Origin: Artemia franciscana
Lineage: Eukaryota > Arthropoda > Branchiopoda > Anostraca > Artemiidae
DNA length: 64,000 nucleotides
Assembly: GCF_032884065.1 (NCBI RefSeq)
Contig: NC_088883.1
Span: forward strand, 21,943,637-22,007,636
Direction of reading: 5' to 3'
The notes beneath the pieces were generated by a model. That model made no database searches. It saw only the letters and a program-made list of their open reading frames with translations, and was not told the origin of the DNA. The translations under genes were made by a program, and so were the position numbers. This document shows positions 1 through 23,804 of this stretch, piece after piece; position 1 is the stretch's first letter; each line of letters opens with the position of its first letter.

Positions 1-136
1 ATTCCACAGAATCTAAAATAGGACTTTAAGAGGAAGTTGCAGTTAATAAATGCAGTCGGGAAATCTAACCAAAAATTTTTGTGTTGTGTGAAGGAAATTT
101 GTGTTGTGTGAAGCAAGACACGTGCAGAAACACGTA

Positions 137-705
137 TGTTTTCTAAAACTACATTCATAATCCTTCCTTTGACACTATTTTGACTAGCATAGTTCTGACA
201 TTTTCGTAGGAAATATGCAGGAATTCGGATATTGAATCCAAGAAGATAATCTTGATATTCTGTGTTTTTCTGAGACGAGGTTGAATGGACAAGACATCAT
301 AACCTTGAATCTCAGACTACAGACTGATGAAAACTTCCCAGACAAACTAACTGAAGAAGAGCTTTATTGAAGAAGAAGAAGAAGAAGAAGAAGAGCTTAA
401 AGAAGAGCACTTGAACGCTACACTTCAACTAGGAACAGCCTCATGATAGACTTCATCCTGCAGGAATGTTTTCTAAAGGTACATTCAGAATCTTTCCTTT
501 GACACTTCATTTTTACTAGCAAAATTCTGACATTTTCGAAGGTAATATGCAGGAATTTGGAACCCTCAGACTACAGACTGAAGAAAACCTCCTGGACAGA
601 CTAGCTGAAGAGGATCTTTGTTGAAGAATAAGAGAAGCTTAAAGAAGAGCACGTGAACGCTACACTTGAACTTGGATCAGCCTCATGATAGACTACATCC
701 TTAAA
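137..705 (+). repeat. two diverged direct repeats of about 330 and 240 bp (copy 1)
   Basis: The segment from 137 (TGTTTTCTAAA, then the ...CTGACATTTTCG... and AATATGCAGGAAT blocks, then ...CTCATGATAGACT near 450) recurs from 467 to about 705 with many substitutions. The first unit also contains a piece matching the endonuclease fragment at 941-1000 (TTGAATGGACAAGACATCAT). A GAA microsatellite of about 26 bp lies at 369-394. The equivalent in copy 2 is 44377-44944. It looks like rearranged 5' parts of the adjacent LINE fragment; no protein is readable. Confidence 0.7.
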
Positions 706-860
706 AATTCATATATTGATTCCTTAAAAAGGGAAATCAACACATTTAATTAAAATCATCTAAGTGAGAGATTCTGTGGTGTCAAACGTAGTTTTCTACA
801 AGCACACCTACCACTCACTTTGACAAGGTACCTCTGCCTGCTCCTCCCTTTGCAGAGCCA

Positions 861-1225
861 TTGCTGAAAACACGCAGAAGCACAGTAAGTTGGATTGCTT
901 ACGAAAGGAGACAGTCTATACTGAGCATATTTCATATTTATAATCTTGATACCCTGTGTTTTTCTAAGACGAGGTTGAATGGACAAGACATCATTACCCT
1001 CGAAGCACCGTCTGGAAAAAGTCATATTTTACTACTCGGATCATCTGAAGGCTCAGGTTTAGCAGGAGTAGGTCTTCTGTTGTCCCCTTAGACCTTCACT
1101 GAATCCCTCAAATATAAAGCAGTATCTAGTAGAACTGTTCGGGCGATATTTAAAGGCCAAAATAACAAAATGACCACATCCACTCATATCCTTATAAGAA
1201 GATTTTTCTCAACGTCCCACCATTA
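861..1225 (+). pseudogene. LINE AP-endonuclease fragment (copy 1)
   Basis: The translation contains YNLDTLCFSKTRLNG, ITLEAPSGK, LAGVGLLLSP and a KAVSSRTVRAIFK block. This matches the N-terminal part of apurinic-type endonucleases of non-LTR retrotransposons (DxLxxxETR, then GVGLMLS, then VSxRIxxARF). A TAG stop at 1089-1091 interrupts it. Copy 2 has AAG there and stays open. No RT of the same element follows, so this is a dead 5' fragment inside a gene intron. Confidence 0.75.
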
Positions 1226-1884
1226 GCCAGGGTAACAAGACAAAGCTGTAGGCAAACAGCTTGGTCTGATTATCTGAAAAAAAAACTAGAAGTATTATAA
1301 ACATGGCTTTGCTCCACACACCACATATACCTTGAATTCATATCCACGAGGCCATTATTTTTTCAAAGTAACTTTTTGATTCTGACAATCAAAGGCTCAA
1401 CAAACCCTTGGCATTGTCATGAGCAAACTAGGGAAAGGAAGATACCCATGATGTCAGACATCCATATCATATCAGACACCCATGATATGTCTGGTACAAC
1501 CAAATGTGTAACAAATGCGTACCATGTCAAGAAACTTACGAATATCATTTTGGAGCCGTTTGAAGAGAAAATCTTTAAGACCCCAGTTTTATTTCTCCCA
1601 AATCTTTTAGTCTTTTCTTTTTAACTTACCTCTGCCCCATTTCCAATTTTTCTATTTTCTGCATTACTGTTTTCATATATCATATATTTAAATATTTCTA
1701 TTTTCTATTTTGTTCTATTTTCTGCATAAAAAAGAAATTCTATTTTCTGCATTCTTTATTTTTTTGGCAAAATTTGAGTAGCGTCAAACGCATTATTGTT
1801 TCTTCTTTTTGTCTAATTTGTGGGTATTTCCGCTTATTTTTAGGGTACTTCTTCACAAAGGCACAAATCCAAACATTTTCTTAC
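1226..1884. other. intronic stretch without a gene (with equivalent 45468-46165)
   Basis: Between the endonuclease fragment and exon 2 I see no coding potential. There is a short imperfect palindrome around CATATCATATCAGACACCCATGATATG (1467-1497), split here only by its centre, and a T-rich run with several TTCTATTTTCTGCAT repeats (1650-1760). Copy 2 carries its extra 39 bp in this interval. Confidence 0.6.
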
Positions 1885-2325
1885 CCGATTTCTCTAGGAT
1901 CAAGTTTGGTCCTTTTTGCGTATCCATCTTCATCATGGTTTCTAAGAGACAGTGGATCGGTATCGAGGTCAACTCTGACTGGAGAACCAAATTTGAAGGT
2001 AACTGGGCTGTTCTGAGTTTTATCAGACAATATTTTTGACTTGCTCATATCAAGTGAAGGATACGCTTTTTTAACTGAACTAAGCTTTGATTTGTATGTT
2101 CTTACAGGTGGTAATTTCGGGGAATTGTTGCTAAACCAATCATCATATTGTGGGCTAGGACTTCGTGCTTCAACCCGCAATTTTTTAGCCTGGGAATTAG
2201 GTGAATTTTCCTTATCTGATGGCGATGAAAACAATGAGCGTGGGGTGAGTTTTCCTTTATTTCGACAAGGTGAAGTACCTTGACTTGACCTGGCATATCC
2301 ATTTGAAAACGCTTGAAACACATTC
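1885..2325 (-). CDS. duplicate of USP37-like exon 2 (copy 1)
   Basis: Same 146-codon exon as 46166-46606, with the same splice sites. The encoded residues are identical, including the KEN box (2205-2213). I see one base difference, a silent Asp codon change (GAC here, GAT in copy 2, around 1968). Exon 3, with the catalytic Cys, would lie left of the window start if this copy extends that far. Confidence 0.85.
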
Positions 2326-2459
2326 CTGAAAAATTAAAATATAGATAAAATAAATAGAAAGATAATTTTTTGATATATATTTCAGTAAGCCAGACAAAAA
2401 AAAATAGCTCGGCTGCAAAAAAAACTTTAACTTATTTTGAAGCATCTCGATATTAACTA

Positions 2460-2705
2460 TGTATCCTGCTTTCTATGGCTATAATGAGAGATAGATATAA
2501 ATGCCTATGGCATGTTCTGTGGATGAAGGATGACAGATTGCCAGACTGTCAGTTTCGGCCAATCGTCCAGGCCTAAATGGAAAGTAGATCGCCCTCGGTT
2601 AAGGTGGAAGGATGTAAAGACGGAAGCTTTGAATAGATTGGGGTGGAGGAGGAGCGTGCATATCTAAGTTGGCCTCAGGCGGCTTGGAGCTATAGTGAGT
2701 TATTA
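2460..2705 (+). mobile_element. 5'-truncated LINE RT tail (copy 1)
   Basis: Fragments read IMRDRYKCLWHVLWMKDDRLP and, after frameshifts, a ...ALNRLGWRRSV-like end followed by a C-terminal GAIVSY-type tail. This is the recurrent RT C-terminus also seen at 15280, 23805 and 24169: a (R)LGHVLRMKDDRLP block, then W-E-D, then EALNRLG. Only about 240 bp remain. The equivalent in copy 2 is 46741-46986. Confidence 0.75.
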
Positions 2706-2872
2706 GTAGTATACATGAACCAATATTGATTCAAGGTTTGAGCTTCAACGGAACTCTTTTCTATGTTTTGAAGAATGTTTTGTACAAACAAACAAAATAC
2801 CATATCGCGAAATATAAATATTGTGTTTTTACAGATTCAACCCTTGGGGATGGGTAAATAAAAAAAGTATAC

Positions 2873-2962
2873 TTTTTTAATAGCACAAATTTCACGAAGT
2901 TTCTCGAAGGTTTTGTAGGCTGATCTTGTAGTCCCTCATCTTTCTTTTCTGCCATAGGCATT
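2873..2962 (-). CDS. duplicate of USP37-like exon 1 (copy 1)
   Basis: Identical over all 90 bases to 47154-47243, including both splice sites. It lies on the minus strand, 3' of the main gene. The window ends before any further exon in this direction, so whether this copy belongs to a working gene cannot be judged here. If copy 1 is an allelic contig, this is the other allele. Confidence 0.55.
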
Positions 2963-3480
2963 CTATTGGAAAATTAAATAACAAAAATGATTTGCAATTA
3001 TGTCTGAAATTTCAACAGTAACAACTATTGATTGACTGATCATTCCATTTTTACTGTTCTACCAATGAAATATGAGTCATCTCTGATTTTTATGTTTTTT
3101 TAGTTTGTTTTTGCTTAGTGTTCAGTTTTAGGCAAACACCTCTTTCTCAAATTTCATGATTTTGCGAAATAATAGTAGTTTTAGAACTTTTCAAAGTTGA
3201 CTGTTGTATCGCATGACTGTTAGGACCAATCTACAGAAGCCTACAAAAACACATTTTTTAAAGTCCTTATCAAAGAATCTTTGAGCCCTTAAACTGTAGA
3301 ATGGAGGAGTTTGCTGAAAACATGAAATACAATCAGTAAAATAAATTACTCAGCATTTTTAAGCCCTTGAGCTAGTGTATGAAGGAAAATTGCATTTCAG
3401 ATAATACATTATCTTTGTAAACAATGGGCTATCTGCACTACAGGAACAATAAATACTTTTTTTTTCTTTCTTTTTTTCTC
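2963..3480. other. intronic stretch without a gene (with equivalent 47244-47760)
   Basis: AT-rich sequence with stops in all frames. No repeat structure is visible beyond T runs near 3460-3480. Nothing else to report. Confidence 0.6.
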
Positions 3481-3529
3481 TCAAACTTAAGTTTATTGTG
3501 AAAGAGTTATAAGGGTTTGGCCTCTGCTG

Positions 3530-4290
3530 TTACCCTAGAAAATGTGTACCTTAGACTAGGTGATGAATATAACGTTACATTGGAAAGCTGCATTTGATGA
3601 TTCCCTAAGGCCAAAAAACAGGTCTTTTGCTTGACCTTGACTCAGAGTATACAGTGTAGGAAATGAAGTGGAGTTTTATAGTTGATTTCAGAGAGGATTA
3701 TTTAAAGATTTTTGGGAAAGTATGGACCTTAGTCTAGATCAATGAATATAGCATTAATTGAATGAATTAGCGTTAATATTATAATATTATTAATATATTT
3801 AATATAAATTATTAATATAAATATATAAAATTAATATAAATATTAATATATATTAAATATATTAACATAAATATAATTAATATAATTATCAATATAAATT
3901 AAATATTAATATAATATTTATTAATATAAATATATATTATATAAATATAATTATTAATATAATATATAAATATAAATTATTATTATTTATATAAACTAAA
4001 TTGAAATTAGCATTAATTAAATGAATATAGCATTAAATTGGAAAACTGCATTTGATTGCATTTGGCAAAAACTCAAGTTTTTTCCTCAACCTCAAGTCAA
4101 GCCATACAGCATAGGAACTGAAGCGAAGTATTACAAACAATTTTGCAGAGATAATAGTTTTATATATAATTTCTGCCAAGTTTCGTTTTCTTCAAACCAC
4201 GATTCTGCTTTGAAGTGGGAAGTTCAATCTGACAAGGAAGTAGGGACCAGTTTCAAACTCAAGTTAGACTACAATCTATAAGTACTTAAG
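3530..4290 (+). repeat. diverged repeat pair split by an AT-rich expansion (copy 1)
   Basis: Two related units: one at 3545-3670 (ACCTTAGACTAGGTGATGAATATA ... TTGGAAAGCTGCATTTGAT, quoted in part), the other starting at 3723 and resuming at 4021 (TTGGAAAACTGCATTTGAT). Between the two halves of the second unit lies about 250 bp of almost pure A/T built from TTAATATAAA-like words (3765-4015). A relative with ...GTGTGGACCCTAGGCCGG... occurs in the TIR element at 26.3 kb. Copy 2 equivalent: 47811-48571. Confidence 0.6.
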
Positions 4291-4424
4291 ATCTATAATT
4301 ATTATCTTACTCCATTACCAAAATATTTTCTTTCAAAAACAAATAAAATCTTAAATTCAATCACAGCACCCAGGCTGCAGCAGCTAAGGCAAACCAAAAT
4401 GTTGGTATTATCAAATGCATAATT

Positions 4425-5094
4425 TTGAGTCAGTCTCCTACAATTATAAGTAAACTTTACAAGAGCCTTGTGAGAAAAAGATTAGGATTTAGAATGTATA
4501 ACAAAACAACGCTTAATATAACGGGCCAGTTAAGGTTTGTATCTGTCCAGAGACAGACAACAAAATGCGTCAAATGGTTCAAAGATAATGAGTATGTATG
4601 CCAATTGTAGACCCTCAAGCTACTAACTTTAACATTTCATCAATGATGAGGTGAAACGGTAATAACCTATAAGCAGTGGTGTTAAATCACAAATATTTAT
4701 GGGGAAGGGGACAAAATGTATTTCTCAAAATCTAGGGGGTGCAAATTTGTCCTGTTTTATTCAATAAAAATACCAAAAAGAGAATTTACCATTGAAATAC
4801 CACAAAAAGATACTTTCAGAATCTAGGGTGGGGGAAAATCTGGGACGGGGACACATGCCCCCCCAATGGAAGCCACTGCCTACAAGCTGCTCAAGTCTGA
4901 TGACAAAACCTGTCCCAGTCTGCAGAGTCATCGAGTACCAGAGGTCATTAAGCAAAGCTGCTCCACAAGAATGCCAAACAAGAAAAATAAATTATTTTTT
5001 CCACAATTGTATCATAGGCCTGTGGAACAGTGTAAGCAAGATAACTGTGACTTCACCAGCTGTTGACAGCTTCAAAGCCAATGACAAGGATTGA
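4425..5094 (+). pseudogene. LINE RT C-terminal fragment (copy 1)
   Basis: The first part reads KLYKSLVRKRLGFRMYN and VQRQTTKCVKWFKDNEY, a degraded form of the LYKSLVRPxLEFG...VQRRATKxIxGLK block of jockey/CR1-type reverse transcriptases. The second part, near 4970-5092, reads FHNCIIGLWNSVSK, then AVDSFKANDKD, the usual RT C-terminal end (R-V-V-x-x-W-N-S-L-P...SVxxFKxxLD). About 190 bp of unrelated sequence separates them. Copy 2 equivalent: 48706-49375. Confidence 0.75.
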
Positions 5095-5146
5095 GTGACA
5101 AACCATAGCTCACACTATGGGATACAGCACACGTTCTTTGCCCCTA

Positions 5147-5247
5147 TTATCACTAAATGGCATATCATCACTAAATGGCATATCATCACTAAATGGCATA
5201 TCATCACTAAATGGCATATCATCACTAAATGGCATATCATCACTAAC
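5147..5247. repeat. 18-bp tandem repeat, about 5.5 units (copy 1)
   Basis: Units of CATATCATCACTAAATGG, nearly perfect. Because 18 is divisible by three the repeat is open in several frames (reading ITKWHI or SLNGIS repeatedly), which explains ORFs of 61-121 codons without protein meaning. Copy 2 (49428-49528) has the same unit number. Confidence 0.95.
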
Positions 5248-5469
5248 TTGCATCTCAACTGTCAAAAATCTTTGTGGGCAAACTCCTTATATTCAGCTTT
5301 AGAAGAGTCAGTCACCTCACAGGGAGTCATGACGGGAGCAAACAATTTTGTAGAGGGTATATTGACCACCTGTCTAAGGTTATCACTTGGTTCAATACCC
5401 CCAAGCACAAAAAAAAACTGGAACATCAAATGTTTATTAACTTCCCATTGTAAATCCTAACCGTCTTAG

Positions 5470-6045
5470 GATGAGATACTTGTACTTGTGGTGGGAGTCA
5501 GGCGTTTCCGCCTCGCCCACCAACCAGGGAACTTGTAACCTGTTTGGACCAGGTTTCACGACCTGTTGTCAATTGCTCTGCAAACAGGGGCCACTGGGCC
5601 GACCATCTAAGTCCAAATTTTTTAAAGCTACCAATGGGATCCAGGTCAGACTTGATCAGGGTCCACTAGTTCTTCTTTCGCAATCCCTGATGTCTCTTCC
5701 AAGAGTCATAGGGCTCAACTAGAAGGATTCGATGGGGCCGGTATTCTGGTGGTCTCTGCAGGACATGGCCCAGCCATTCTAAGCGGCACTTTTTGACAGT
5801 GGTAGCAAAATCTCTTCTAATCTTACAGAGTTGGCGAATATCAGAGTCAGAAATACAATATTGCCGGCAAATTCTAAGTATTTGGCGTAAGCATCCATGT
5901 TGAAAGGCAGCTAATGCTCTCTTGTGTTGAAGCTTCAAGGACCAAGTTTTGCATCCATAGAGTAGGATGGTTTGGACCATGGCCGTACAAATTCGACTTT
6001 TAGTCGGAATGGAGATTTCTCGGCGGTTTCAAAGGGTCAGATGAG
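5470..6045 (-). pseudogene. LINE RT C-terminus and 3' region (copy 1)
   Basis: Read from about 6045 to 5666: a degraded RRNISL-like start, then AMVQTILLYGCKTW, then CLRQILRICRQYCISDSDIR, then CRLEWLGHVLQRPPEYRPHR and a short tail ending in KN. This is the standard end of a non-LTR reverse transcriptase (AxVxxxLLYGCETW...RWLGHVLRRP). 5470-5660 would be its 3' untranslated part. It is 5'-truncated. Confidence 0.85.
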
Positions 6046-8480
6046 ACAGTAAATATTAATAAACAAACATTAAATAATGATAATCAGGATGGATTTTGTG
6101 CTTATGAATACACCCTTGAATATTTTTGTTCTGTATTATTCATTTGTATTCTGTTAATAACCACATTGTAGCTTTTATTGGAAAGGTACACCATCTAGTT
6201 GGATGAACGAAAGAAAAGTAAAGGGGGAATATATATCAAATTGTACTATCTTGAATGGCAAAGAAGAATTTTTCTATGGGGTCAACAAATCCCGAAGTTT
6301 GTGATTTAGCAGCCTTGTGATCCCATATTTAAATCCTTAAGACAGTAAAGAGGGCTTACAGATCAGCCACTTTCCATTAGGACCAAAAGTTGTTGTTCTA
6401 CATGAATCAAACATTTGGAAACCTAATCTACAGCCAAAATTAAGGGTAAGAAGCTGATTCGAAGCAGCTTTCTAAGGTCCATCTTTTTAAGGTTTTAGAT
6501 TCTATGAAGGCAAGTCTGATTCTATGAAGGCAACTTGAAAAAAAAAATTACTGAAATATTGAAAATGTCAACTCAAGGTAACCATGGAGACATGTTGATT
6601 TGCAAATATTTTACTGGATCAGATAATAGTCTTTTTAACACAGATTCTGTGACTCATCAAACGAGAAGACATCAAAAAACTGTTTAAAGACACAGTTAAT
6701 ACTGGGAAATACACAAACTGTTTAGCTAAATAAGTAATTAATGACTGGAGTGGACTAGCCTAGGTGAAGACAAGGTAACTGCTCCAATTACAACATCACC
6801 CTCATCAGAATTGGATACACATTAGAACGACAGACCATGGAAATAAGATTGAATTTACTGTACACTCAACAAACAAGTAACTCATTCATGTGGCATGTCA
6901 TGTAAGTTTCAGTGAAATGATGTTTTATAAATACATAAAATATTTGTTAGTTTCAACAGAAATTCTGCATAACTTTCATCAACTCAATTAAAGTACAATT
7001 TAAAATGTAATTAAAATATCCATAATTTTAACTATTTCCTAAATAATCTACCATTTTGCTGAATAGCAGATTTACTATGCATCTTTTTTCTTTACTGTAC
7101 AATTAAACCTGAGACTTTCTGTAATTTTTTTTTTAAAGCATACATTCCAAAAATGAATGGAAAAAAATTTTGAAACCAATTAAACCAAGTCCTATTTAAA
7201 ATGAGTTTCATAGAAACATTAAATGGAATTGGTTGTTCTATTGCTTTTGTTTAGAAAAGGAATGGCACTGTAAATTTACCTCAACTTTTTTAACATTATC
7301 AAGCCAGACATGAAGGGAAGATACAGAGGTAGAAAATTAAAAGTACCTGTAAGAGCTAAAGGGTCTGAACCCACTCTTCCCGAAATTTCTGTCTGACTTG
7401 TAAAAACATAACAAATTGCATATAAACAAATTTTTGCTATGTTAAGAAACAATTTTGCACCCCCTCCCCTCAATCCCCCTACGAAAAAATATCCCTGAAT
7501 AAAATTTCGCTTTTTTGATTGATCTGATCTGGTTTATGTAATAGAGATTTTTTTTATGGATCAGGTTTTTGTAATAAAGATTCTTCTGTTTTGCCTGCCC
7601 TCTCTGATAAGATTTATGCACCTCACAATACAATGGCCTCTAATGAGGTGAATAATTGCACCTTGGATATCTCAAATTACCATTAACTGGACTTGCAAGC
7701 AACAGGACAATGATGTTAGTTATGATTTCAACCCAATAAAAAATGAAACAAAACATAGAAATAGCTCATTGTCATTTGACATGAAGGAACGTGTTTTAAA
7801 CATCAGCCTACTATTAATCTAATGCTTTTACTATACTCTTACCACTTATACTGGGGCTTTCAAGTTTAGTTTCCATGATTTATCACACCAATTAGTGTCT
7901 TTACCTTTCTTGAGTGTGCTGGCAGATGCAGAAGTAGCACTGCTGTCAATGGGAGTTCCACAGTGACACAACCTTGTTTGAAAAGAATGCAGTTGTGCTT
8001 CTTTCCAAAGTGACTTCAACCCATAATTAGCAGCTATGGCTGCAAAACTCTTATATTTTGGTCTCAGTATTTTTCCCCTTTATTGACTGACTATTGAGTC
8101 TGACTAAACCTTGGTAGAATTTGCTAATAACTTTATTCAGTCTTCTGTTTTGTTTCAATTAATGAGTGCATGTTGCTTGATGACAGAGATGACAATCTCA
8201 AAAAGCACACCTGCCTGATACATGTTCTTTCCTTGAAATAGACTTGGAATGCTAACCCTTATTGATTTTTTTCCCTCAAGAAAAAGGCAATGGCAACTTG
8301 CTGACTGAGGTCATCCATTGTTATGAATACTTGAATCCAGCAAAATCAATAAGTTTTATCTTACTTCAACCTATAAAGTTCGAAGCATTTCATCTCTATT
8401 ACAACAATTATACCTCTATTTACTTTTGTATAATGCATTAAAATAACTCGGAAGTAATAGAACAATTACAGACATAATTC
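6046..8480. other. intronic/intergenic stretch without a gene (with equivalent 50327-52766)
   Basis: No coding sequence recognised. A G-rich dispersed repeat on the minus strand around 7380-7480 resembles the piece at 40.5 kb (shared CAGACAGAGATTT...GGGGG context). A duplicated GATTCTATGAAGGCAA word lies at 6500-6540; copy 2 has one more ATTCTATG unit. The rest is AT-rich single-copy-looking sequence. Confidence 0.55.
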
Positions 8481-9174
8481 AACAGATGCAAGAATCTCAA
8501 CTACCTATCTCAACTGAATAAGCAACAGCTTCCAACACTTGTGTAAAGATGATATCAGCAAGAGAGCTGATATGATAATGGCTTATAAGCTTTTGAACCC
8601 AGACTTTTTGAAAATGAGCAAAGCTTTTGAAAACAAACAAACATATATTTTTGATGTTGTTAAAGTGAGAAGAGATGTGCCCCAAGGCACAGTCCTGGGC
8701 TAAACTCTATTCAGTATATTCATTAAAAATGGAATCCCAAACATTAGAATGAAATAAGCCTTTATGCAGACAATTCAAGAGTAATTAGTTCTGTAAAAAC
8801 ACCAGATAAGATAGAATAATAGCAAAATTTAAAGTCACATAAGCAGAATTGAACTTTTCTGCTTATTGGACAAAGATTTGGAAGCTGGAGTTTAATTTCA
8901 AGAAATGCAAAGCAATCCGCTTTGGTACAAGTAACCCAAGACAAAAAAGGAGTTAAAAGATGGAACAAGGTAGCCCTGTTGAATGAGACCTGGGTGTACT
9001 AGTTGATTAAGAATTGATATTTAACCTCCAGACTCGGGCTGCTGCTACAAAGGCTAGTTAAACTCTTGATATAATCAAGAGTTTGACAAAAATATTTAAT
9101 ACAAAATATAAAATAATTACATAATACTTAAACACAAAATAGTTAGAACAACATACAAAAATCTCAATAGTCAT
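8480..9174 (+). pseudogene. LINE RT fragment, cut by the gap (copy 1)
   Basis: After correcting by eye for frameshifts, reverse-transcriptase motifs follow in order: RRDVPQGTVLG (motif B), LYADNSRVIS (motif C, Asn in place of the second Asp), KCKAIRFGTSNPRQ, DLGVLVD and QTRAAATKAS. This order is that of jockey/CR1-type RTs. Many stops. The copy ends at the Ns; copy 2 shows how it continues. Confidence 0.8.
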
Positions 9175-9274
9175 NNNNNNNNNNNNNNNNNNNNNNNNNN
9201 NNNNNNNNNNNNNNNNNNNNNNNNNNNNNNNNNNNNNNNNNNNNNNNNNNNNNNNNNNNNNNNNNNNNNNNNNN
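9175..9274. other. assembly gap, 100 Ns
   Basis: Exactly 100 Ns, the usual placeholder for a scaffold gap of unknown size. Both flanks are reverse-transcriptase sequence, but of different elements on opposite strands: plus-strand RT on the left, minus-strand RT on the right. The join is therefore not a short gap inside one element. Confidence 0.99.
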
Positions 9275-9993
9275 ATGAAAATATGTGTTGCGACGACGGC
9301 ATCTTCTGTCGATCTATCTTTTAAAAAACCAAACTGGACCTTCGAAAAAAAAATTATCTTTTCCAGAAAGGATGTAAGTCTATGCTTCATTATTTTTTCA
9401 AAAACTTTAGCCAGTGGGGAAAGGAATGCTATAGGACGGTAATTATTGGGGTCTTGAGCCTCACCTTTTTTAAATATAGGGATTATTTTAGCCTTTTTCA
9501 GAAGATCAGGGAAGACACCATTTTTTATGCTCGTATTTATAACATGTGCAAGAGGTTCATATATTACTCTTGATATTTTCTTCAAAAGATTTGTCGATAT
9601 ATCATCTACTGAGGCTGAATTTCCTCTCTTTAAATCACTAATAGCTTTTTGGTATTCATCAAATGATACTGGTAGCATATACAATGATTTATCTTAGTTT
9701 TGGGGCAAAAATCGTGTATAATCTGATGACTCATCCAAAAGATCTCTATCCAATTCTTCACCAATTTTATTGAAATGCTTAGCAAATAATTCCGCGATAT
9801 CCTTTTTTTCAGTTGATTCATTAACGTCATTTCCATTATTAAGAAAAGTCGGTGTTGCTCTTGGTTTATTTTTATTTAATTTATCACGCAAGATTTCCCA
9901 CATTTTCTGCTGGGACGCAGCTGAAGATATTTCGTTCTCATAATAATTTCTTTCACTTTCTCTCAAAGTTCTAATCAGAGTATTTTTGTACAA
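9275..9993 (-). pseudogene. LINE ORF2, reverse-transcriptase N-terminal part
   Basis: Reads MWEILRDKLNKNKPRATPTF and HFNKIGEEL, then after a frame break FDEYQKAISDLKRGNSASVDD, AKIIPIFKKGEAQDPNNYRP, FEKIMKHRLTSFL and FGFLKDRSTEDAV. These are RT motifs 0 to 2a of non-LTR elements (K...D...IP-IFK-KG...NYRPI, then FxxxxSTxDA). The sequence stops at the gap before the motif A aspartate. Confidence 0.88.
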
Positions 9994-10305
9994 TTTGAAT
10001 TTCTGGATGTATTCATCAGAAATAATTGCATTTAATTTTGTATAGTCTATTTTTTTCTTTAATACATTTTAACAGTCTCGGGGATATCCATGGTTTTTGT
10101 GGCATTGACTTGGGTGTTTTCCTTTTAACTTTCGGACATATCATATCATTATAAACATCACTAAATGATTTATAAAACATTTCCAATGCCTTGTTTGCAT
10201 CCTCAGTACTGACTACTTCCTTCCAATCTATATCTACTAGCTTAATACTTAAACGCGCAATTGATTCATCATTTAGTATACGACTTGTTCTTTCATTAAG
10301 TTTAT

Positions 10306-11171
10306 TTATTTTTTAGATCTGGCCAAATTAAATTCAGAAATTATCACACCGTGATCTGAAATATCATTTAATATGACAATAGTTGAAAAACAAATACTAT
10401 TCGAAAAAATATTATCAATTAATGTTGCTCCATTATCATCTATTCGAGTTGGAATCAGACATGATGGGAGCAGTCCTTGACAAAGCATTAGTTCTAAAAA
10501 TTCTCTTATCTTCGAATCATTTTGCTTTGCTTGAATTTTCATTAGGTCTAGGTTGAAATCACCAAAAATAAACATTTGCTTATTGATTTTTTGATATTTT
10601 ATTTAACAGAATTTTAAATTGCATCAAAAATTGGTCTATGCTTCCGGAAGGTGGGCGATATAAAGATATCATGATTGTTGATTTTTTATTAACTTCACAT
10701 TCCAGAATACACGTTTCAAAAATCATTTCTACATTCCAAATCATTATGGTCTCGTCTTATTTTCGATTTTAACTCTTTTCTTATGATAAATCCTAATCCA
10801 CCATGCGGATGGTGTTTTCTACTCTCGTGAACAAAATCATAATCAAGAAACATTACATCATTAATATTCCTAGCATTTAAGAAAGTTTCGTTTACCGCTA
10901 AAGCTTCAATTTCATTTTTATTAATTATATCATTTATGAACTCAATGCTACTAAGTAAATCTCTGCAGTTAAAACTAGAAAAACGTACATTACTGCATGT
11001 GGGGATAGAATCATCCATAAATGAAAATTTGTTTTTCGGGTTATCTTCCAAAATTACTGCTTCATCATCCTTCACATCCCTCATGCATTTCAGTATATCA
11101 AAAGGATTTTCCTCTAACAGTTTAGTTCTGCTTACAAGATCAGGTAAATTATGTAAACTCAATATCATCAA
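10306..11171 (-). pseudogene. LINE ORF2, AP-endonuclease part
   Basis: Two open blocks separated by about 140 bp with stops. The first (11171-10716) reads VRFSSFNCRDLLSSIEF, IEALAVNETFL and HGGLGFIIRKEL. The second (10575-10306) reads MFIFGDFNLDL, TRIDDNGATLIDNIFSN and ISDHGVIISEF. These are the N-x-R, ETxL, GG, GDFN and SDH motifs of the endonuclease that nicks target DNA. The gap between the blocks reads SLYRPPSGSIDQFL in another frame, so one or two frameshifts suffice to explain it. Confidence 0.85.
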
Positions 11172-11582
11172 TCAACAAAAAAGCCTCACTCCAGTTAATC
11201 AACAATTTAACAAAAGACCACTCAAAAAAGAAAACTAAGCTAAGCAGATATAACAACCGCACACGTCGGAGAATTCCATTGCATTTTGGTGAAAGTATGT
11301 TCATTCTTTCATTCGTATTCATTCTTATTTTCGTTCATTCTTTCTCATTCAACAGAGATTTTGGCAACAATGTGCGTACACCAACACAAATTTGCGCATT
11401 TATGTGGTGACTATTATGAACAAATCCTAACAAGTCACTAATAATGACAAAAAAAAAAAACATAATTTATTCGACTGGTGGGAGGTTATACCACTTCTTT
11501 TTCTGTTTCACTCCGTCTTGGTCTATGTAGCATAATGTGGGTGGTACCATGGGTTGGATCCATGCAACAAAACATTTATCTT

Positions 11583-12242
11583 TCATTTCTTTCTTTTTCT
11601 TTGATTTAGCGTAGCGCGAATCTCCCTGCAGGTTTTACTAACATCATCACTGAAGAAAACTCCATTGTAATCAAATTTTGACGCTTTATCTAGGTCTTTT
11701 TTCCAGGACTGGTCACGTAATTGTTTATTCGCTTGAAGTGCCGAGAATTTGTCATCCGAGTTCATGAGTTGTATTTTCACAAATTTGTCATGTACTTCTT
11801 TAACTTCAAAATTAACTTTCAGTTGTAAGAAGTTTTCCAGCAAATCTTCCATTTTCGTCGAGGCCTCCGGCACTGAGGCACCCTTTAAATTCCAAGAAAT
11901 AATGTTGTCTTTCTTTTCCAAATTCTCCAATATGAGGACCTTATCAGTGAGAGGTCCTAATCCATGGGTTCCTTTCTTTTGTATATCTTTTAATTCTGCC
12001 TGAATCTTTGTTATTGTATCCGAGTGGGTCGCAGTTATGATTTCAATATCATTCACTTTGGAGGTTAGACCACTAATGTCTGAACGGATTTCGGATAATT
12101 CCGATCTCAAACCTTGTATCTCTTCCCGCGTTGCTTCAACTGTTTCTAAAATCTGATGGACCGAAATGGTCAGCGCATCAATCGAATCACATATCGTCCC
12201 TTGGGCTGTTGAATCTTCCACAGATAATCGTGTGGATTCCAT
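11583..12242 (-). CDS. LINE ORF1 protein, 219 codons
   Basis: Intact frame starting MESTRLSVEDSTAQGT. Residues about 20-95 form heptad-like Leu/Ile spacing (ALTISVHQILETVEATREEI and on to SDISGLTSKVNDIE), a likely coiled coil for trimerisation. The C-terminal half has an RRM-like stretch ending FSDDVSKTCREIRATLNQRK, typical of LINE ORF1 nucleic-acid-binding proteins. It would bind the element's RNA. It ends in a basic RKRKK tail and is followed by about 400 bp before the endonuclease frame. Confidence 0.75.
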   Translation of the reverse strand: MESTRLSVEDSTAQGTICDSIDALTISVHQILETVEATREEIQGLRSELSEIRSDISGLTSKVNDIEIITATHSDTITKIQAELKDIQKKGTHGLGPLTDKVLILENLEKKDNIISWNLKGASVPEASTKMEDLLENFLQLKVNFEVKEVHDKFVKIQLMNSDDKFSALQANKQLRDQSWKKDLDKASKFDYNGVFFSDDVSKTCREIRATLNQRKRKK

Positions 12243-12720
12243 ATCATTAAAGAATAAATAAAAAAGAAATAAAATAAGGAATAAAAAAGGACTAGAACTA
12301 CTTTTCTTGTTTATTTAAGAAATGATTCCTTCCATATCAACAGTTGCTTGCTAATGGTTCCTTACTACAATAGCAAGTTCTTATTATCCCTTAACTCGGC
12401 TAGCGAGGGAAAGAATCCTCCCTTAACAAAACCAGTAAAGAACGAATCCTGTTGTCAGCGCTTTCAACCCAACTATTTTTTAGAGTCATTGTTGAAAGAC
12501 ACATGTGTTATGTCATCTTTTATGTGAAGATACAGTTTTTATGTCAAAAATTCATATTTCATTTTTACAATGTTATTTTATGTTAATTACAGAAGAAACT
12601 AGATATTGCGAAATCCCTTCAAATGAAACCTTGGAATAGCTCTCTATCATGTTCAGGTTCCCTGCAATCTGTTAATAAAAAGAAGAACAAAAAAAGAATA
12701 AAAAAACACATTTGTGCTAC

Positions 12721-12903
12721 CTATGCAAATAAATGATTTTCCTTGTTGTTCAAGGTAGTGGGTAGTAACTTTCCTTTTCGGAGCTTTCGATAATGGCAGT
12801 TGCAGTGGTGCATATTTCCATTCAAAATTCCCATAAATTTGTTTTCCCAGTAAACTTTTACTATCAAGATTAATCAAACTAATAGTTAATATTCCTAAAT
12901 CAG
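12721..12903 (-). CDS. candidate exon of unknown product
   Basis: A 183-bp open stretch on the minus strand. It has a good acceptor (TTTTCACCTTTAG) and a donor (GTAGCA), entering and leaving in phase 1. It would encode about 60 residues including SLINLDSKSLLGKQIYG and LQLPLSKAPKRKVTTHYLEQ. The composition is protein-like and the flanks are AT-rich. I do not recognise the product. It could be a later exon of the USP gene, but the phase does not match a direct join to exon 6, and the similarity to the segment after LHLKRY is too weak to claim. Confidence 0.35.
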
Positions 12904-13119
12904 CTAAAGGTGAAAATTTTTTGTCGCTTGACAGTTGTTTTTTTTTCTTTTTTTTTCAAAAATCATATTTAAATTTATGGTCGTATTTGTTTTTCATTAC
13001 GTTACACCTACTGTAACAGCTATGAAAATGACAAGTTTTCCTACTTCTCAAAACTCAACTAAAGTTAACATGGAGGGAAATCTTATCTGAAGCTGCCTTC
13101 TCAGTACCTATTTGATTAT

Positions 13120-14460
13120 ATGAAAAGTGCTTTCACACTACACCGTATACGAAATGGCATGTATATTAGTACCATAAACACTAGCACCATTTACTTTCTT
13201 GACGACATTGAGGGTGCTTTCAAAACACTACCTATTTCAACACTATATACTTTAATAGCCATACTTGCTCGACTAAACCGTCATCACCATAGACATTAGT
13301 GCCGTTTTCTTATTCGACAAGATTAAAGGTCCCTTCACACTACACCGTATACACTAGCACTGTGTATATCGGCAACATACACTCTAGCACACTTCAATGG
13401 TTCTTTCACACTACGCCGTATACACTCGCACAATGTATATCAGCACCATATACACTAGTACCGTTTAATTATTCGACGGTATAAAAACTTCTTCCACACT
13501 ACACTGTATACACTAGCACTGTCTATATCAGCAGCATATACTCTAACACCCATATGTGTTCGAAGATATCAGTGGTACTTTCACACTAAACCGTATACAC
13601 TACTACTGTATGTATCACCACTATAGACACTAGCACTGTGCATATCAGCACCATACACTCTAGCACCCATACTTGTTCGATGATATCAATGGTTCTTTTG
13701 AACTATACAGTATAACCTATCACCATGTATATCAGCACCATATACACTAGTACCGTTTATTATTCGACGATATTAAAGGTCGTTTCACACTACACTGTAT
13801 ACACTAGCCCCGTGTATATCAGCAACATATATTCTAGCATAGTTTACTTGTTTGACGATATCAATGGTTCTTTTACACTACATCGCATACACTAACAACG
13901 CGCATATCAGCACCACATATACTAGCACCGTCCATTTTTCGACAATATTAGAAGTCCTTTCACACTACACTGTATACACTAGCACTGTCTTTATCAGCAC
14001 CGTATACCCTAACAACCATATTTGTTTGACAATATCAGGAGTTTTTTCACGCTAGTCAGGATATACTAGTACTGTATGTATTATCACTATAGAGACTAGC
14101 ACCGTTTACGTATTCGACAATACTAAAGGGCCTTTCACACTACACCGTATACACTAGCAATGTGTATAGCAGCGCCATACACTCTAGCACCCATACTTGC
14201 TCGATGATATCAATGGTTCTTTCACACTGCACCGTAAATACTGGCACCATGTATATCAGCACAATATACACTAGTACCGTTTACTTATTCGACGATATTA
14301 AAGGGCGTTTCACACTACATTGTATCCACTAGCACTGTGTACATCAGCAACATATATTCTAACACCGTTTACTTGTTCGACGATATCAATGGTTTTTTCA
14401 TGCTACATCACATACACTATTAACGCGCATATCAGCACCGCATGCCCTAGCACCGTTTAA
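13120..14460. repeat. satellite: about 14 monomers of ~87 bp with higher-order repeats
   Basis: Monomers begin near 13128, 13331, 13404, 13491, 13577, 13694, 13781, 13869, 13956, 14043, 14131, 14218, 14306 and 14394. The consensus runs TTTCACACTACACCGTATAC, ACTAGCACTGTGTATATCAG and GTTTACTTATTCGACGATAT. Monomers 13694, 13781 and 13869 are closest to 14218, 14306 and 14394, a distance of about 524 bp or six monomers, so a six-monomer higher-order unit exists. ORFs inside are a by-product of the repeat. Confidence 0.93.
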
Positions 14461-15107
14461 TTTTACATATTTTCATCTAACTTCCCTACACAGACACAAT
14501 TAACATCTCAGGAATAATTCAATCAAGACCTATTTTTTAGAAGTTAATTCAGACGATTGGGAAAAGAAACGTTAAAAATATTATTAAATAAATACATAAA
14601 CACATAACATAAACAAAAACATAAACACAATAAGGTACAAAAAAATGCAACAGAAGTAATATTGAAAAGAATAATCAGACCAGGTATAAAATTACAAGCA
14701 AGTATTTTGATCTAACTTTTATACATAGACACAATTACCATATTAGGAATAATAGAACATGTCAGGAATACCTCAGGAATAGTTCAGCCTATTAAATCAA
14801 GCAATTGAACGAGACCCTTTTAGTCCTTGCTTTTATAGATTAAGAAAAAGCGCCTGATTCAGCCGGTAAAAGAGCTTTAATGAAGGTCCTACCCCTTTGT
14901 GGTAAATGAGATAAATACAGTTAAGTGATTATTGCTACGTGCGAGAAAAACATTGCTGCAATTAAAATATGTTGATGATTTAAGCATCCTTGATGATAGT
15001 GTGAGTACAATGAAAGAACATTTCAAGCGAACATTTCACTCTGAACAAGCGAGTTCAGAGTGCTAGGATAGCTTTAAGAATTATTGTCAAGAAGAATAAG
15101 TTTATGT
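14461..15107. other. stretch without a gene
   Basis: AT-rich; two related pieces (TCTAACTTCCCTACACAGACACAATTA-like at 14475 and a diverged copy at 14710) form a loose direct repeat about 235 bp apart. No coding frame. Confidence 0.5.
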
Positions 15108-15270
15108 TAGTCGGGGGTAATGTCTATATTAGTCGTGGGTAATCTCTATATTAGTCGGGGTAATGTCTACATTAGTCGGAGGTAATGTCTATATTAATCA
15201 GAGGTAATGTCTATATTAGTCGGGAGCAATGTCTATATTAGTCGGGCGTAATGTCATTATTAGTCGACTA
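15108..15270. repeat. 22-bp tandem repeat, about 7 units
   Basis: Units of GTCGGGGGTAATGTCTATATTA with single-base variants. The array directly precedes an RT tail, as if it were part of that element or an expansion at its edge. Confidence 0.93.
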
Positions 15271-15279
15271 ATATAGCAA

Positions 15280-15935
15280 TAAGAGACGAGGAAAAGGTGA
15301 CGTTGAGTACCAAAAAGATCGTCAAAGTAGACAGCTTCACTTACCTTGGTAGTATTATTAGTAACGATGGTCGATGTAGTGAACATGTTAAAAAAAGAAT
15401 AGCAAAGGTCCAGGGTATTTTTTCATAGTTGAAAAAAGGTTTCGAAGAATAGGTAGATTAGAATATTAGAAGCAGCAGTGGTGACAGTCGTCAATTATGG
15501 GTTTAGTAGATGGGCGCTCCAAAAGACAGAGGATTTGTTAGATGTTTTCCAGAAGAATGGTCCAAGGATCCTTCCGGGTACCCGTTTGACTGACCCTATT
15601 TCAAACAGTAAGCCGTAAGAAAAATGTGGATCAATCGCGCTTTCTAGGGTTATAATGAGAGAAAGCTTGAGATGCCTAGGACATGTTCTACGAATGAAAG
15701 ATGACAGATCGCCAAAAACCATCCCTTTTGGCCAATCATTTAGGGCCAAACAAAAAAAAGGTCATTCATGAATGGGGTCGGAGATCATAAGGAAGGAGTT
15801 AATAGAAATGCAAACTTCGTGAGATGGCGTAAAGAGGAAAGCTTTAAATAGATTAGGATTGGAGGATGACATAACTGTTTTGGGCTCAGGCAGGTTAGTG
15901 CTGCAGTGAGCTGTTGGTATTAGTAGTTAAGTTAC
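15280..15935 (+). pseudogene. 5'-truncated LINE RT C-terminus
   Basis: Reads KKIVKVDSFTYLGSIISNDG, then VKKRIAKVQGIFS, then WALQKTEDLLDVFQKN, LTDPISNSK, MRESLRCLGHVLRMKDD and KRKALNRLGL. This is the standard order for a non-LTR RT end (VDSFxYLGSIIS, RI, LLYG-like, RxLGHVLRM). Frameshifts and stops are frequent. It is a fuller member of the tail family at 2460, 23805 and 24169. Confidence 0.9.
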
Positions 15936-17244
15936 TTTTCTGCAAACAATTTGAATGAACATGCTTTCTTATCAGGAAATGAAGGAAAAAATTGCGTCCT
16001 TTTATGGATAAAATTAATCCTATAAGATATTACTGAGATGTACCAATCTAATTTACCCATCAAATAGCCCTTCTTAATCTCATATCACCGAAAACCTTTG
16101 GCCGGTTGACGCTTCAAAAACAGGTGGAACAGACAATTCAAGAAAACAACAACAAAAAGAACTATTTAAAGCTTAACGTATGTTTGAGATATCTTAATAT
16201 CCATCAAATAACCCTTTTTACTACAATGGCGGTTCTGACCTCTTTTGCGCCCGGGGTAAAATCTTGATTATCCACACACACACACATACACACACACACG
16301 CCCTTCTCCCATAGAATTTTGAGGTCGAATTTTAACAAAACTTTCATTATTTAAACAAAACTATTTTATTTTATTAATAAATTGATAAAAATTTTTTAAT
16401 TTATTATTTATAATATTCAATTATCATTAATCGTTTTAATTCAATTATTTTCATTATTATTATTCATTTTTTAATTTATTTTATTTAAAAATCAACTTTA
16501 TTATATATGCGCCCTCTAATTAATTTAATAGAAATAAAACTTCAAAAACTACAGAATGATTGTAACGGTTAAATTATTTATTTGGAATTTTGCGGCCCTA
16601 AAATTTCTGCACCCGGCGAAAGCGTCCCTTTTCCCTCCCTCCCCGGAAAAAAAATATATTTATCACTGTCATATCGGCAAGAACCTCTGTCCAGTTGACG
16701 CGAGCCAAAAAAGAACAAAAGATTATATAAAAAAAAATGAAACGCTTAAAATGTCGCTGAGTTTTTGCAGGCCTTCATTTGCATAAAAATGACCCTTTTT
16801 ACTCCCACACCAGAAAAAAAACTTCTGACCGGTTGACCCTAGCAAAAATAAGATGAGAAAAAAAATTCAAGCTCTTAGAAAACAATGAACGAGAAATCAA
16901 AATCAGCTAAAGTTTCAATACTAAGCGTGTGAATCCCAGAAAATCTCAAAATGTGTATTTTACGTCAATTGCAGGAAAGAACTGAGGTTGTTAGGTTCAA
17001 AAATGTGGTTTAGTTTTCCAAATTTCCTTAACTAATTAAACTCAATTAATTAATTACCTTAATAAAATTAATTAACAAATTTAATTTAGTAAAAATTTAT
17101 TTGATTATCTATTCATGAAAAAGCGTTCAACCTTTTCACATGTAACATTTTCGGAGACACTGCTACGCCTCCTTGACAAGTAGTAGACCTGGACACTGTT
17201 CCAGTATTTTTCACTATAAAAGAAAGTTTACTTGACTGTTTATC
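15936..17244. other. repeat-rich stretch without a gene
   Basis: Holds a CA microsatellite (16268-16300) and three diverged copies of a motif with CCGGTTGACGC...AAAA (near 16102, 16692 and 16838), suggesting an old tandem or dispersed repeat. It is followed by a T/A-rich block at 16340-16510 of ATTTTATTTTATTAAT words. No coding frame. Confidence 0.6.
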
Positions 17245-17850
17245 AGGCGCTTGGTTCATGCTGTTTTCTTTCTGGACTTGAGGTACCAAATTTGCAAAAA
17301 TGAGCTAAAGTTGAACCTCCCAAAGTAAAACCTCTAAGTTGAACCACAGTTTAACCTCCCAAGTGTCTTTAAGCTTACCCATCTCTACAGCCTAATTCTA
17401 TTTCAACAATTTCATTATTAGACTTCATGTTTTTTTATTTCAAATTTTCTGCGCGTTTGAAAATATTACAGATAAAACACTCCTGTTTTCACATGACCGC
17501 CTCAACAGGCCTCAACGTTATTTTTGCATGACTGTGACACCTACCTGAATGGGCAGAGGTGCCAATATGCTGAATTACCCCAAATAATTTGTACTGGCAA
17601 CCATTGGCGGCACAAGAAGCAACTTTTTCAGAATCCGCATCCTTCATACTCGAGAGTCCAAAAGATGACAGCAACTCAGGATTTGAGGAACTACAAAAAA
17701 AAACATTCTTACAAGACTGTGCTCGACACATTTTGCATACATATTAAGTATGTATACTTGACATATTTTTATATTTTGTATAGCAAGCATATACCAATGA
17801 GAAAGGGGCAACCTTCAGACTCAGTATTATTCGGATATCTCACGATGTCC
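17245..17850. repeat. direct repeat pair, unit 1
   Basis: Matches 18120-18560 in the same orientation, with much divergence and indels. Shared words include AAAGTTGAACCTCCCAA, TTGAACCACAGTT, TTTGTACTGG, CAGAATCCG and GAGAAAGGGGCAACCTTCAG. Units start about 870 bp apart. The spacer holds T and C runs. No protein; both strands have stops. Confidence 0.85.
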
Positions 17851-18119
17851 TCTATAATTCCTATATAGTTTGCCCCAGCTATAAACACAAACTTATCTTG
17901 AGGAATATTTTTTTTTTTTTTGGTATTTTCATTGAGAAAAATAAAAAAAAGAACAAAATTCCTTTCCCTCCTATATTTTGAAAAATAATTTCTTTGTATC
18001 TTCTTTCTAAAACAATACAAACAAAAATTCCTCCCCCCCCCCCCGATAGACGAGAGACGGAGTGTAGATAGCATCCCTGGCTCTGAAAAGAAAATTGGTG
18101 GTTTATCCAGTCGGTCTGG

Positions 18120-18560
18120 CTAATTTTCTTTTCTTCCAGGATGTGAGGTGCCAAAATAGCTGAGAACAGTTAAAGTTGAACCTCCCAAGTTGAACCACAG
18201 TTGAAACTCCCGAATGTCTTTAAATTATCCGTCTCTCCAGCTTAGTTCTATTTTAACAATTTCATTGTTAAACTTTAAGTTTTTTGCTTTCAAATTTTCC
18301 GCATGTTTGATTTGTACTGGTAATGGTAATTTGTATTGGGGATTTGTACTGGTAACCATTGATTGTACAAACTTTTCCAGAATCCGTATCTCTCACATTC
18401 GATAGTGCAAAAGCTGACGGCAACCCTGGATCTGAAGAACTACAAAAAAGAGCAGTCTTGCAACACTGTACTTGACATATTTTGCTACAACGTAACAAAA
18501 AAATTAGAGCAAGTATACACAGCTGAGAAAGGGGCAACCTTCAGGTTTAGTACCGTTCGA
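18120..18560. repeat. direct repeat pair, unit 2
   Basis: Second copy of the repeat at 17245-17850, shorter through internal deletions. It ends with GAGAAAGGGGCAACCTTCAG followed by unrelated sequence. Confidence 0.85.
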
Positions 18561-19007
18561 ACAACAAAAGAATAATGATACAAAAATAAAACAACAAAAT
18601 AAAAATAACATCTCCTGTTTAACCTATCACCTGTCAGAGTTCTATAGAGACAAGGTCGTTAAATTTCCTACGTTCAATCGGATTAAACGAAACATAGTTT
18701 TCAAGAATGAATTATGAATACTTTAACAATGAGGTCCTTGTGATTACCCTACTAAGACAAAACAGACCCCATGATGACCATTGCTGTTGAAGAATTAAGT
18801 TACAGAACCGAGGGAAGTTTTCAAAGCAGTATGCAGACAGGAAAGACTAGGATCTTAGCACTTAAAATTTAATCTGTTTTACCAAAATTCCAGGAATCGT
18901 CGCTATGACACTTAAAAACCGGATAAAACTTATTAACTACAATAATATAATAAAATAAAACATTGGGATATTTAACATTAATAAGAACAAAAACACATTT
19001 TCATCAA

Positions 19008-20060
19008 ACAGTTCGTGGTAACGAACTGTAGTAAGGAGCGACCCGGCTCAATAGTAACCGAAACTCTAAAAAATGGAATTTCGATACCAATAATTACAAC
19101 AAAAGATGTTTACACCTGTCTTTACATATAGCAATGATTATTGGGAAGTGTACATACGTTTTCAGGGGATTTTTTTGTTTAGGGGGGAGAACTGAGGCGG
19201 GGGCGTTACGTGGGAAGATATTTCCATGGAGAAACTTCTCGTGGGGGAAGAGAATTTCAATGCATTAATTTCATTAGAAGAAATTATTCTAGCATTATTT
19301 GAAAAAACAAGGAAAAAAAATATGAAAAGTTTTTTTCTACTGAAAGTAAGTAGCAGCATTAAAACTTAAAACGAACAAAAATTATTACCCATATGAGGGG
19401 TTTACCTCCTTGTTATTCCTCACTCTTTACGCTAAAGTATTTTTAATGATTTCAACTATTTATTCTACGGCCTTTGTGATTTAGAGGTCATTCTTAAGGA
19501 ATTGGGACATGATTTCAGCTTTAGTGTAAAGAGCGAGATATTAACGACGGTTGACTCCCTCATAAACGCAATAAAAACATACAAATATAGAAGTTCGTTA
19601 CGTAAGTTAATTCGTAAGTTACGTATATTTTTTACCAATGAAAACGTTTGTAAAAATTAACAGTTCTAGTTGCTTTTTTAAGTAATCCAAAAATTGGAGG
19701 GCAACTAGGCCTCCTCTCTCGCTCCTTTTTCTCAAGATATTCCGATTAATTGCAATTCATTAATATCCAAATTTCGTTTTAATTATTTATGTGCAGAGAG
19801 CCAAGATCAAAACATACATTAATTATCAAACGTCCAGAGATTAAATAAAAAAAAAAACAAGTTTTTTTTTTAAATGAAAGTAAGGAGCAGCATTAAAATT
19901 CAGAACAAACAGAAATTACTCCATGTATGAAAGGGGCTTTTCCTCCTCAACAACCTGCTCTTTACGCTAAAGTTTGACTCTTTCTCTTAACTCTATTTTT
20001 ATAACAGTAAGAAAATTCCCGCCCCCCTCTCCTCCTGGTCAAGCCCTAAAAGTTACCTGT
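19008..20060 (+). repeat. dispersed repeat starting with a perfect hairpin
   Basis: It begins with ACAGTTCGT-GGTA-ACGAACTGT (19008-19029), a perfect 9-bp stem with a 4-base loop. Two subrepeats follow, at about 19345-19435 and 19875-19980, each with GCAGCATTAAAA, ACAAAAATTA or ACAGAAATTA, and CTCTTTACGCTAAAG. Pieces of the same repeat occur inverted at 43051-43270 and 63585-63690. From memory it resembles an abundant Artemia repeat; not verified. A non-autonomous Helitron-like element is one possibility because of the hairpin. Confidence 0.8.
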
Positions 20061-23799: not shown

Positions 23800-23802
<3 letters not shown>

Positions 23803-23804
23803 TA

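What the first reader, a model, noticed from the sequence alone, without database searches (positions are those of the whole stretch)
1..9274. 9.2-kb duplicate ends exactly at a 100-N gap: probable misplaced allelic contig
Everything from base 1 to the gap matches 44241-53461, about 1-2 % diverged, in the same orientation. The contained piece starts at the window edge and stops at the Ns, as a redundant haplotype contig would. If real instead, it is a recent partial duplication of a deubiquitinase gene including its KEN-box exon.
Basis: partly seen in the sequence, partly recalled or inferred. Interest (0 to 1): 0.7.

Follow-up and report, generated by a model that had tools for sequence, protein, structure and literature searches.

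The report
Haplotype copy wedged into assembly
The repeated stretch is very probably the second parental copy of one chromosome region, wrongly inserted into a cut in the first copy while the genome was being pieced together, so it is an assembly error and not a new gene duplication.

Summary
The repeat is real in the file: window 1-9174 matches 44241-53461 on the same strand with 75 substitutions in 9169 aligned bases (0.82%) and 11 indels. It is only the visible tip. In the host genome (1.27 Gb, scaffold C21) the contig ending at 9174 ("A") runs left without a gap for at least 129 kb. Its last 45.2 kb match contig B (9275 onward) from B's very first base. About 270 kb further left another contig end ("A0") matches A up to the base just before B's match begins, and is also followed by exactly 100 N. 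So A0 and B abut with no base lost, cut inside a LINE that A carries uncut. Simplest reading: one haplotype's contig (A0|B) was cut during scaffolding, and other contigs, ending in the alternative haplotype A, were inserted with 100-N spacers. A ubiquitin-specific protease gene is thereby doubled; its catalytic exon was found only at these two places. Two similar near-duplicates turned up on other scaffolds. No reads were available, so allelism is inferred, not proven.

The parts
1..9174 (+). Right-hand end of contig A (alternative haplotype); copy 1 as seen in the window
   Evidence: 0.82% substitutions against 44241-53461; match continues 36 kb left of the window
9175..9274 (.). 100-N scaffold gap between contig A and contig B
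   Evidence: the only N run in the 244 kb C21:21823637-22067636
9275..53461 (+). Stretch of contig B duplicated in contig A (C21:21907644-21952810)
   Evidence: 1.47% substitutions in 38 of 45 one-kb bins
9275..12314 (-). LINE retrotransposon (coiled-coil ORF1-like, endonuclease-like and RT parts) cut at base 9275 inside the RT frame; not cut there in contig A
   Evidence: RVT_1 E 3.8e-07, 30.4 bits against cut-off 29.6, profile positions 3-55 of 205; in A the frame stays open for 34 more residues and RT-like sequence goes on in shifted frames; its part at about 10298-12250 has 38 other places at 86-94% identity among 40 candidates scored. Left limit is the cut; right limit is an ORF edge, not a mapped element end
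1884..2333 (-). KEN-motif exon of the deubiquitinase gene, copy 1 (open frame around the exon)
   Evidence: 150 aa identical to copy 2, one silent difference, both splice sites identical
46165..46614 (-). KEN-motif exon, copy 2 (by splice signals the exon is about 46166-46606)
43503..43742 (-). Cys-box exon of the ubiquitin-specific protease (open frame around it)
   Evidence: Pfam UCH E 2.7e-07; 2 of 11 scored candidates in the genome match, the two copies
37374..37637 (-). Exon of the same protease (QDAxE-like region; open frame around it)
   Evidence: weak UCH match, below cut-off; joined-exon search hits USP8, USP4, USP15 in PDB
24664..25107 (-). Exon with CxxC of the same protease (open frame around it)
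   Evidence: no Pfam match alone; part of the joined-exon PDB match; open in A in a shifted frame
20660..20836 (-). Exon with LKRY motif of the same protease (open frame around it)
   Evidence: weak UCH match, below cut-off
17492..17743 (-). Exon with His-box-like sequence, same protease (open frame around it)
   Evidence: UCH E 0.0045 over residues 34-74, below the curated cut-off; in A the frame has a stop at residue 9, before that part

Best explanation
This is a haplotypic false duplication made by scaffolding. One haplotype was assembled as a contig of which we now see two pieces, A0 (ending C21:21683036) and B (starting at window 9275). That contig was cut at one point inside a LINE. About 270 kb of other sequence was inserted into the cut, with 100-N spacers at both ends; its last contig, A, is the other haplotype of the same region. 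The file therefore reads A0 - 100 N - other sequence - A - 100 N - B, and everything shared by A and A0|B appears twice. Shown: the two-fold sequence, the base-exact abutment of A0 and B against A, the 100-N gaps at both cut ends, and the LINE uncut at that point in A. Inferred: that A and A0|B are alleles, and that a misjoin-correction step made the cut because the LINE cannot be mapped uniquely.
For: A0's last base aligns to A base 21907643 and B's first base to A base 21907644; A0 is followed by exactly 100 N and B is preceded by exactly 100 N. The last 80 bases of A0 are identical to A. The A/B match begins at B's first base and ends at A's last base. The LINE RT frame is cut at B's start and goes on in A, and the neighbouring part of this LINE has at least 38 other places. 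Divergence is uneven along the block (chi2 118, df 37, p 2e-10; 1.76% in 25 bins left of 38 kb, 0.91% in 13 bins right of 40 kb) with presence/absence differences, as expected of recombining alleles. The protease exons recognised are open in both copies over their protease-like parts. The right flank of the block is listed once in full length (40 of 353 candidates scored). Two other same-strand near-duplicates in the assembly have similar divergence: C14, 458 kb apart, 97.7-98.1%; C15, 153 kb apart, 98.9%. [quoted passage not shown]
Against: No read depth, k-mer or long-read test was possible. 0 of 4 samples left of A0's matching part gave an allele-like match to A, so A is not shown to be a contained haplotig; one of the two may be wrongly joined or structurally different there, or another contig may begin there (not tested). 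A0 against A is 93-99% identical depending on place, partly in tandem repeats, lower in places than A against B. The region holds other close repeats, including a stretch matching at 99.8-100% at 128 kb distance in 3 of 20 samples, so real segmental duplication nearby cannot be ruled out.
Confidence: 0.94

Rival explanations
1. A true recent segmental duplication: a block of about 45-62 kb carrying the protease gene exists twice on this chromosome, and the junctions happen to fall in assembly gaps.
For: Both copies have open protease exons. Real, widespread gene duplication has been claimed for another animal, the cat flea (abstract and outline seen, PMC7305587). Other near-duplicates exist in this genome.
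Against: A real insertion would need both of its junctions hidden in exactly 100 N, with the two broken ends fitting base to base inside a LINE reading frame. A plain tandem duplication would not explain A0. The sequence after 53461 shows only four short repeat-like matches to 9275-44240. Divergence is uneven, though gene conversion could also do that.
Confidence: 0.04
2. A plain unmerged overlap of two neighbouring contigs: the right end of A overlaps the left end of B and the order A-B is correct.
For: Suffix of A equals prefix of B, same strand. Heterozygous overlaps are a known failure that, to its authors' knowledge, long-range scaffolders do not handle (PMC7203741, passages).
Against: B's left end is not a natural contig end: it continues base-exactly into A0, about 270 kb away.
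Confidence: 0.02

Closest known systems
Heterotype (haplotypic) false duplication, Ko et al. 2022, PMC9516828 (passages seen)
   Same: Two allele-like copies on one scaffold, with an assembly gap between them; genes counted twice
   Different: Here the other haplotype's contig is itself cut and the alternative contig sits in the cut; depth, linked-read and k-mer criteria could not be tested
Haplotig or heterozygous overlap as removed by purge_dups, Guan et al. 2020, PMC7203741 (abstract and passages seen)
   Same: Suffix-prefix match of two contigs at allele-like divergence
   Different: The overlap comes from a cut in B's parent contig, not from a natural contig end; full containment of A not shown
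Ubiquitin-specific protease (Pfam UCH), perhaps USP37-like
   Same: Cys box, later catalytic-core pieces and a KEN motif on separate exons of what looks like one gene on the minus strand
   Different: Subfamily not tested; the KEN box of USP37 is recalled, and only a search listing of papers was seen

Membership tests
Heterotype false duplication (criteria of PMC9516828) | Assembly gap between the duplicated pair on one scaffold | tested here: met
   100 N at 9175-9274; second 100-N gap at the A0 cut
Heterotype false duplication (criteria of PMC9516828) | Haploid-level read depth on each copy | not testable with these tools
   no reads held
Heterotype false duplication (criteria of PMC9516828) | Haploid-specific (1-copy) k-mers | not testable with these tools
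   no reads held
Heterotype false duplication (criteria of PMC9516828) | Discordant linked read pairs | not testable with these tools
   no reads held
Allelic haplotypes (my own criterion, not from a paper) | Low divergence, uneven along the block, with presence/absence differences | tested here: met
   1.47% in 38 of 45 bins, chi2 118, df 37; 17 of 126 indels are 50 bp or more. Not exclusive to alleles
True segmental duplication | Junctions present as continuous sequence | tested here: not met
   the inserted stretch is bounded by 100-N gaps and the two outer ends abut base-exactly
Contained haplotig | Whole contig A matches the other haplotype | tested here: inconclusive
   the match spans 61.7 kb of at least 129 kb of A; 0 of 4 samples further left gave an allele-like match
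Ubiquitin-specific protease (UCH, PF00443) | Cys-box region above the curated cut-off | tested here: met
   E 2.7e-07, 30.9 bits against cut-off 23.9
Ubiquitin-specific protease (UCH, PF00443) | His box | tested here: inconclusive
   17492-17743 matches UCH at E 0.0045, 17.1 bits, below cut-off 23.9
USP37 subfamily | KEN box plus ubiquitin-interacting motifs and PH-like N-terminus (recalled) | not tested
   only the KEN letters were seen

The most novel reading that the evidence does not exclude
A real, recent duplicative insertion of tens of kilobases into a LINE, doubling a deubiquitinase gene with a KEN motif in this species, with both junctions lost in gaps.
Probability: 0.04. Interest if true: 0.35.

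Novelty: not a real feature. Interest (0 to 1): 0.12.

Why it matters
It warns that this assembly probably counts some genes twice: the protease gene here, and likely a proteasome-family gene on C14 and a stretch on C15. Gene-family counts, copy-number claims and variant calls in such stretches would be wrong. It also gives a precise, checkable signature: two contig ends that fit base to base against a third contig, with other sequence between them, mark a scaffolding cut without any reads.

Tried and rejected
Plain tandem duplication: rejected because 53462-64000 shows only four short matches to 9275-44240 and because of A0.

Plain dovetail overlap of A and B: my first reading, replaced when A0 was found.

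The search of the right flank 53462-63461 was swamped by a repeat, so that even the query's own place was not listed; a shorter stretch was used. A search meant for the left flank fell inside the overlap and instead showed the copy number of part of the LINE.

Family surveys for PF00118, PF00493 and PF10596 did not complete, so how common such duplicates are rests on one answered family search and a chance hit. The ungapped abutment test was spoilt by small indels (74 mismatches in 200 and 89 in 200) and is not used. Rfam at gathering scores and tRNA scans of the window: 0 matches. The organism was not identified.
Full report
What was claimed.

Check of the observation. The N run is exactly 9175-9274. 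Bases 1-9174 align end to end with 44241-53461 on the same strand: 9094 identical columns, 45 transitions, 30 transversions (0.82%), 6 deletions and 5 insertions in copy 1, the largest 39 bp. Substitutions are clumped at the 250-base scale (variance/mean 2.13; p 0.0002 from 5000 simulations), weakly at 500 bases (p 0.03) and not at 1000 (p 0.38).

The window edge hides most of it. The window is C21:21943637-22007636, strand +, of a 1,270,528,402-base assembly in 6468 contigs. Of 42 listed matches to 1-9174 (40 of 6667 candidates scored, so counts are lower bounds), two are full length, the two copies; 38 are about 560 bp at 83-87% (a dispersed repeat at 5477-6036) and two lie in an AT-rich repeat. 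I fetched 80 kb to the left and 20 kb to the right, and later 40 kb more on each side. In these 244 kb the only N run is the one in the window. The match continues left without a break in order: A (C21:21907644-21952810, 45,167 bp) against B (window 9275-53461, 44,187 bp), beginning at the first base of B and ending at the last base of A.

The decisive fit. B begins inside the reverse transcriptase frame of a LINE on the minus strand: RVT_1, E 3.8e-07, just above the curated cut-off, profile positions 3-55 of 205, running up to the cut. In A the same frame stays open for 34 more residues past that point, and RT-like sequence goes on in shifted frames; the element is not intact in A either. A search with part of A's left flank showed a further copy on the same scaffold, 222 kb to the left, same strand (98% over 1.9 kb, with a dispersed repeat present in A and absent there). 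Short stretches and samples showed this copy, A0, running along A between 21671738 and 21683036: 2,972 bp at 96.7%, 500 bp at 98.8%, 1,137 bp at 93.8%, and two samples at about 93%, one of them in a tandem repeat; the bits between the samples were not read. A0's last base, 21683036, aligns to A base 21907643, and B's first base aligns to A base 21907644. A0 is followed by exactly 100 N, and B is preceded by exactly 100 N; the last 80 bases of A0 are identical to A. So A0 and B are two pieces of one sequence cut at a point, with nothing lost, and about 270 kb of other sequence, ending in A, lies in the cut.

Reading. A cut without loss, with 100-N spacers on both sides, is what a scaffolding step that breaks a contig and re-orders pieces leaves behind (that some such programs use 100 N is recalled). 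The cut lies in a LINE whose neighbouring part (about 1 to 3 kb from the cut) has 38 other places at 86-94% among the 40 of 153 candidates scored, where reads are hard to place; that this caused the cut is inference. The contig put next to B carries the other haplotype. Shown: duplication, abutment, gaps, and the LINE uncut at that point in A. Inferred: allelism and the cause of the cut.

Allele or paralogue. Over the A/B block 42,081 columns align with 722 substitutions and 126 indels, 17 of them 50 bp or more. These totals include a badly aligned stretch at about 38.3-39.8 kb. Keeping 38 of 45 one-kb bins (left out: 4 bins with fewer than 900 aligned columns and 3 starting at 12275-14275, in and around a tandem-repeat array), 553 of 37,695 positions differ (1.47%), unevenly: chi2 118, df 37, p 2e-10; 1.76% in 25 bins left of 38 kb, 0.91% in 13 bins right of 40 kb. 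Uneven divergence fits recombining alleles better than a single duplication date, though gene conversion or uneven mutation could also produce it. Presence/absence differences include a 777-bp repeat only in A flanked by ATATAA, a 509-bp zinc-finger tandem copy only in B, and a block of about 1.5 kb only in B next to an AT microsatellite. The right flank 53720-55700 is listed once in full length; of the other 51 listed matches one is 132 bp at query 597-728 and the rest lie within query 1112-1980, a dispersed repeat (40 of 353 candidates scored).

The gene. On the minus strand lies a ubiquitin-specific protease: Cys-box exon at 43503-43742 (Pfam UCH, E 2.7e-07). Pieces joined from the window match USP8, USP4 and USP15 in the PDB (best E 2.3e-13). 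The KEN-motif exon gives 150 identical residues in the two copies, with one silent change and identical splice sites. The other exons recognised are open in both copies over their protease-like parts, with a few amino-acid differences; in A the frame at the His-box-like exon has a stop at residue 9, upstream of the part that matches UCH (residues 34-74), and the 24.7-kb exon is open in A in a shifted frame because of length changes in flanking sequence. The Cys-box exon matches at 2 of 11 scored candidates in the genome, the two copies. Thus the doubled block holds all the exons I recognised, not the KEN exon alone. Whether it is USP37 was not tested.

Is the assembly prone to this? One answered family search (proteasome, PF00227; 33 matches) showed one gene twice on C14, 458 kb apart; the 10-kb stretches compared there are 97.7-98.1% identical. 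A chance pair on C15, 153 kb apart, is 98.9% identical over 3.2 kb, with 574 bases present in one copy only. These support an assembly-wide cause but do not prove it, since real duplications would look alike at this resolution, and no gaps were sought there.

Against. No reads, depth or k-mers could be examined. 0 of 4 samples left of A0's matching part (21604001 to 21660300) gave an allele-like match to the 129 kb of A held; one gave only repeat-like matches at 69-75%. So A is not shown to be contained; either haplotype may be structurally different or misjoined there, or another contig may begin there. One stretch matches at 99.8-100% at 128 kb distance in 3 of 20 samples, unexplained.

Literature. 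Ko et al. 2022 (PMC9516828, passages) list gaps between copies, half depth, discordant linked reads and one-copy k-mers as the marks of false duplications. Guan et al. 2020 (PMC7203741, abstract and passages) state that to their knowledge long-range scaffolders do not handle heterozygous overlaps. Driscoll et al. 2020 (PMC7305587, abstract and outline) is the counter-example in which duplication was held to be real.

Verdict. An artefact of assembly, ordinary in kind, with an unusually clean signature. Interest is low for biology and moderate for users of this assembly.

Noticed in passing
window 30081-30369 and 30590-30891: A 509-bp spaced tandem copy of a stretch with C2H2 zinc fingers, with no mismatch between copies (13 bp of gaps), present in B and absent in A: a young length difference between the two haplotypes or a local assembly error.
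   Followed up: partly
L035 (C14:23283001-23293000) and L036 (C14:23741295-23751294): Proteasome-family gene present twice, same strand, 458 kb apart, 97.7-98.1% identical: probably another haplotypic duplication.
   Followed up: partly
L037 (C15:35421001-35425000) and L038 (C15:35573826-35577825): Pair 153 kb apart, 98.9% identical, with 574 bases in one copy only.
   Followed up: partly
L048-L050 (C21:21696801-21701700) against C21:21824825-21829702: Three of 20 samples match at 99.8-100% at 128 kb distance; a young mobile element or an exact duplicate, not resolved.
   Followed up: no
window 53462-53704: Right after the last base matched by contig A, B carries an open frame that looks by eye like the tail of a LINE reverse transcriptase (Pfam gives only a sub-threshold DUF1623 match), so A may end at a repeat boundary.
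   Followed up: no
window 20660-21020 and 17492-18540: The LKRY-type and His-box-type exons of the protease each seem, by eye, to have a diverged neighbour copy (one nearby 140-bp DNA match at 82%), suggesting old exon duplications within the gene.
   Followed up: no
window 38251-39759: About 1.5 kb present only in B beside an AT microsatellite; frames there look by eye like a hAT-type transposase remnant, but Pfam gave no match at E 0.1 to the two frames tested.
   Followed up: partly
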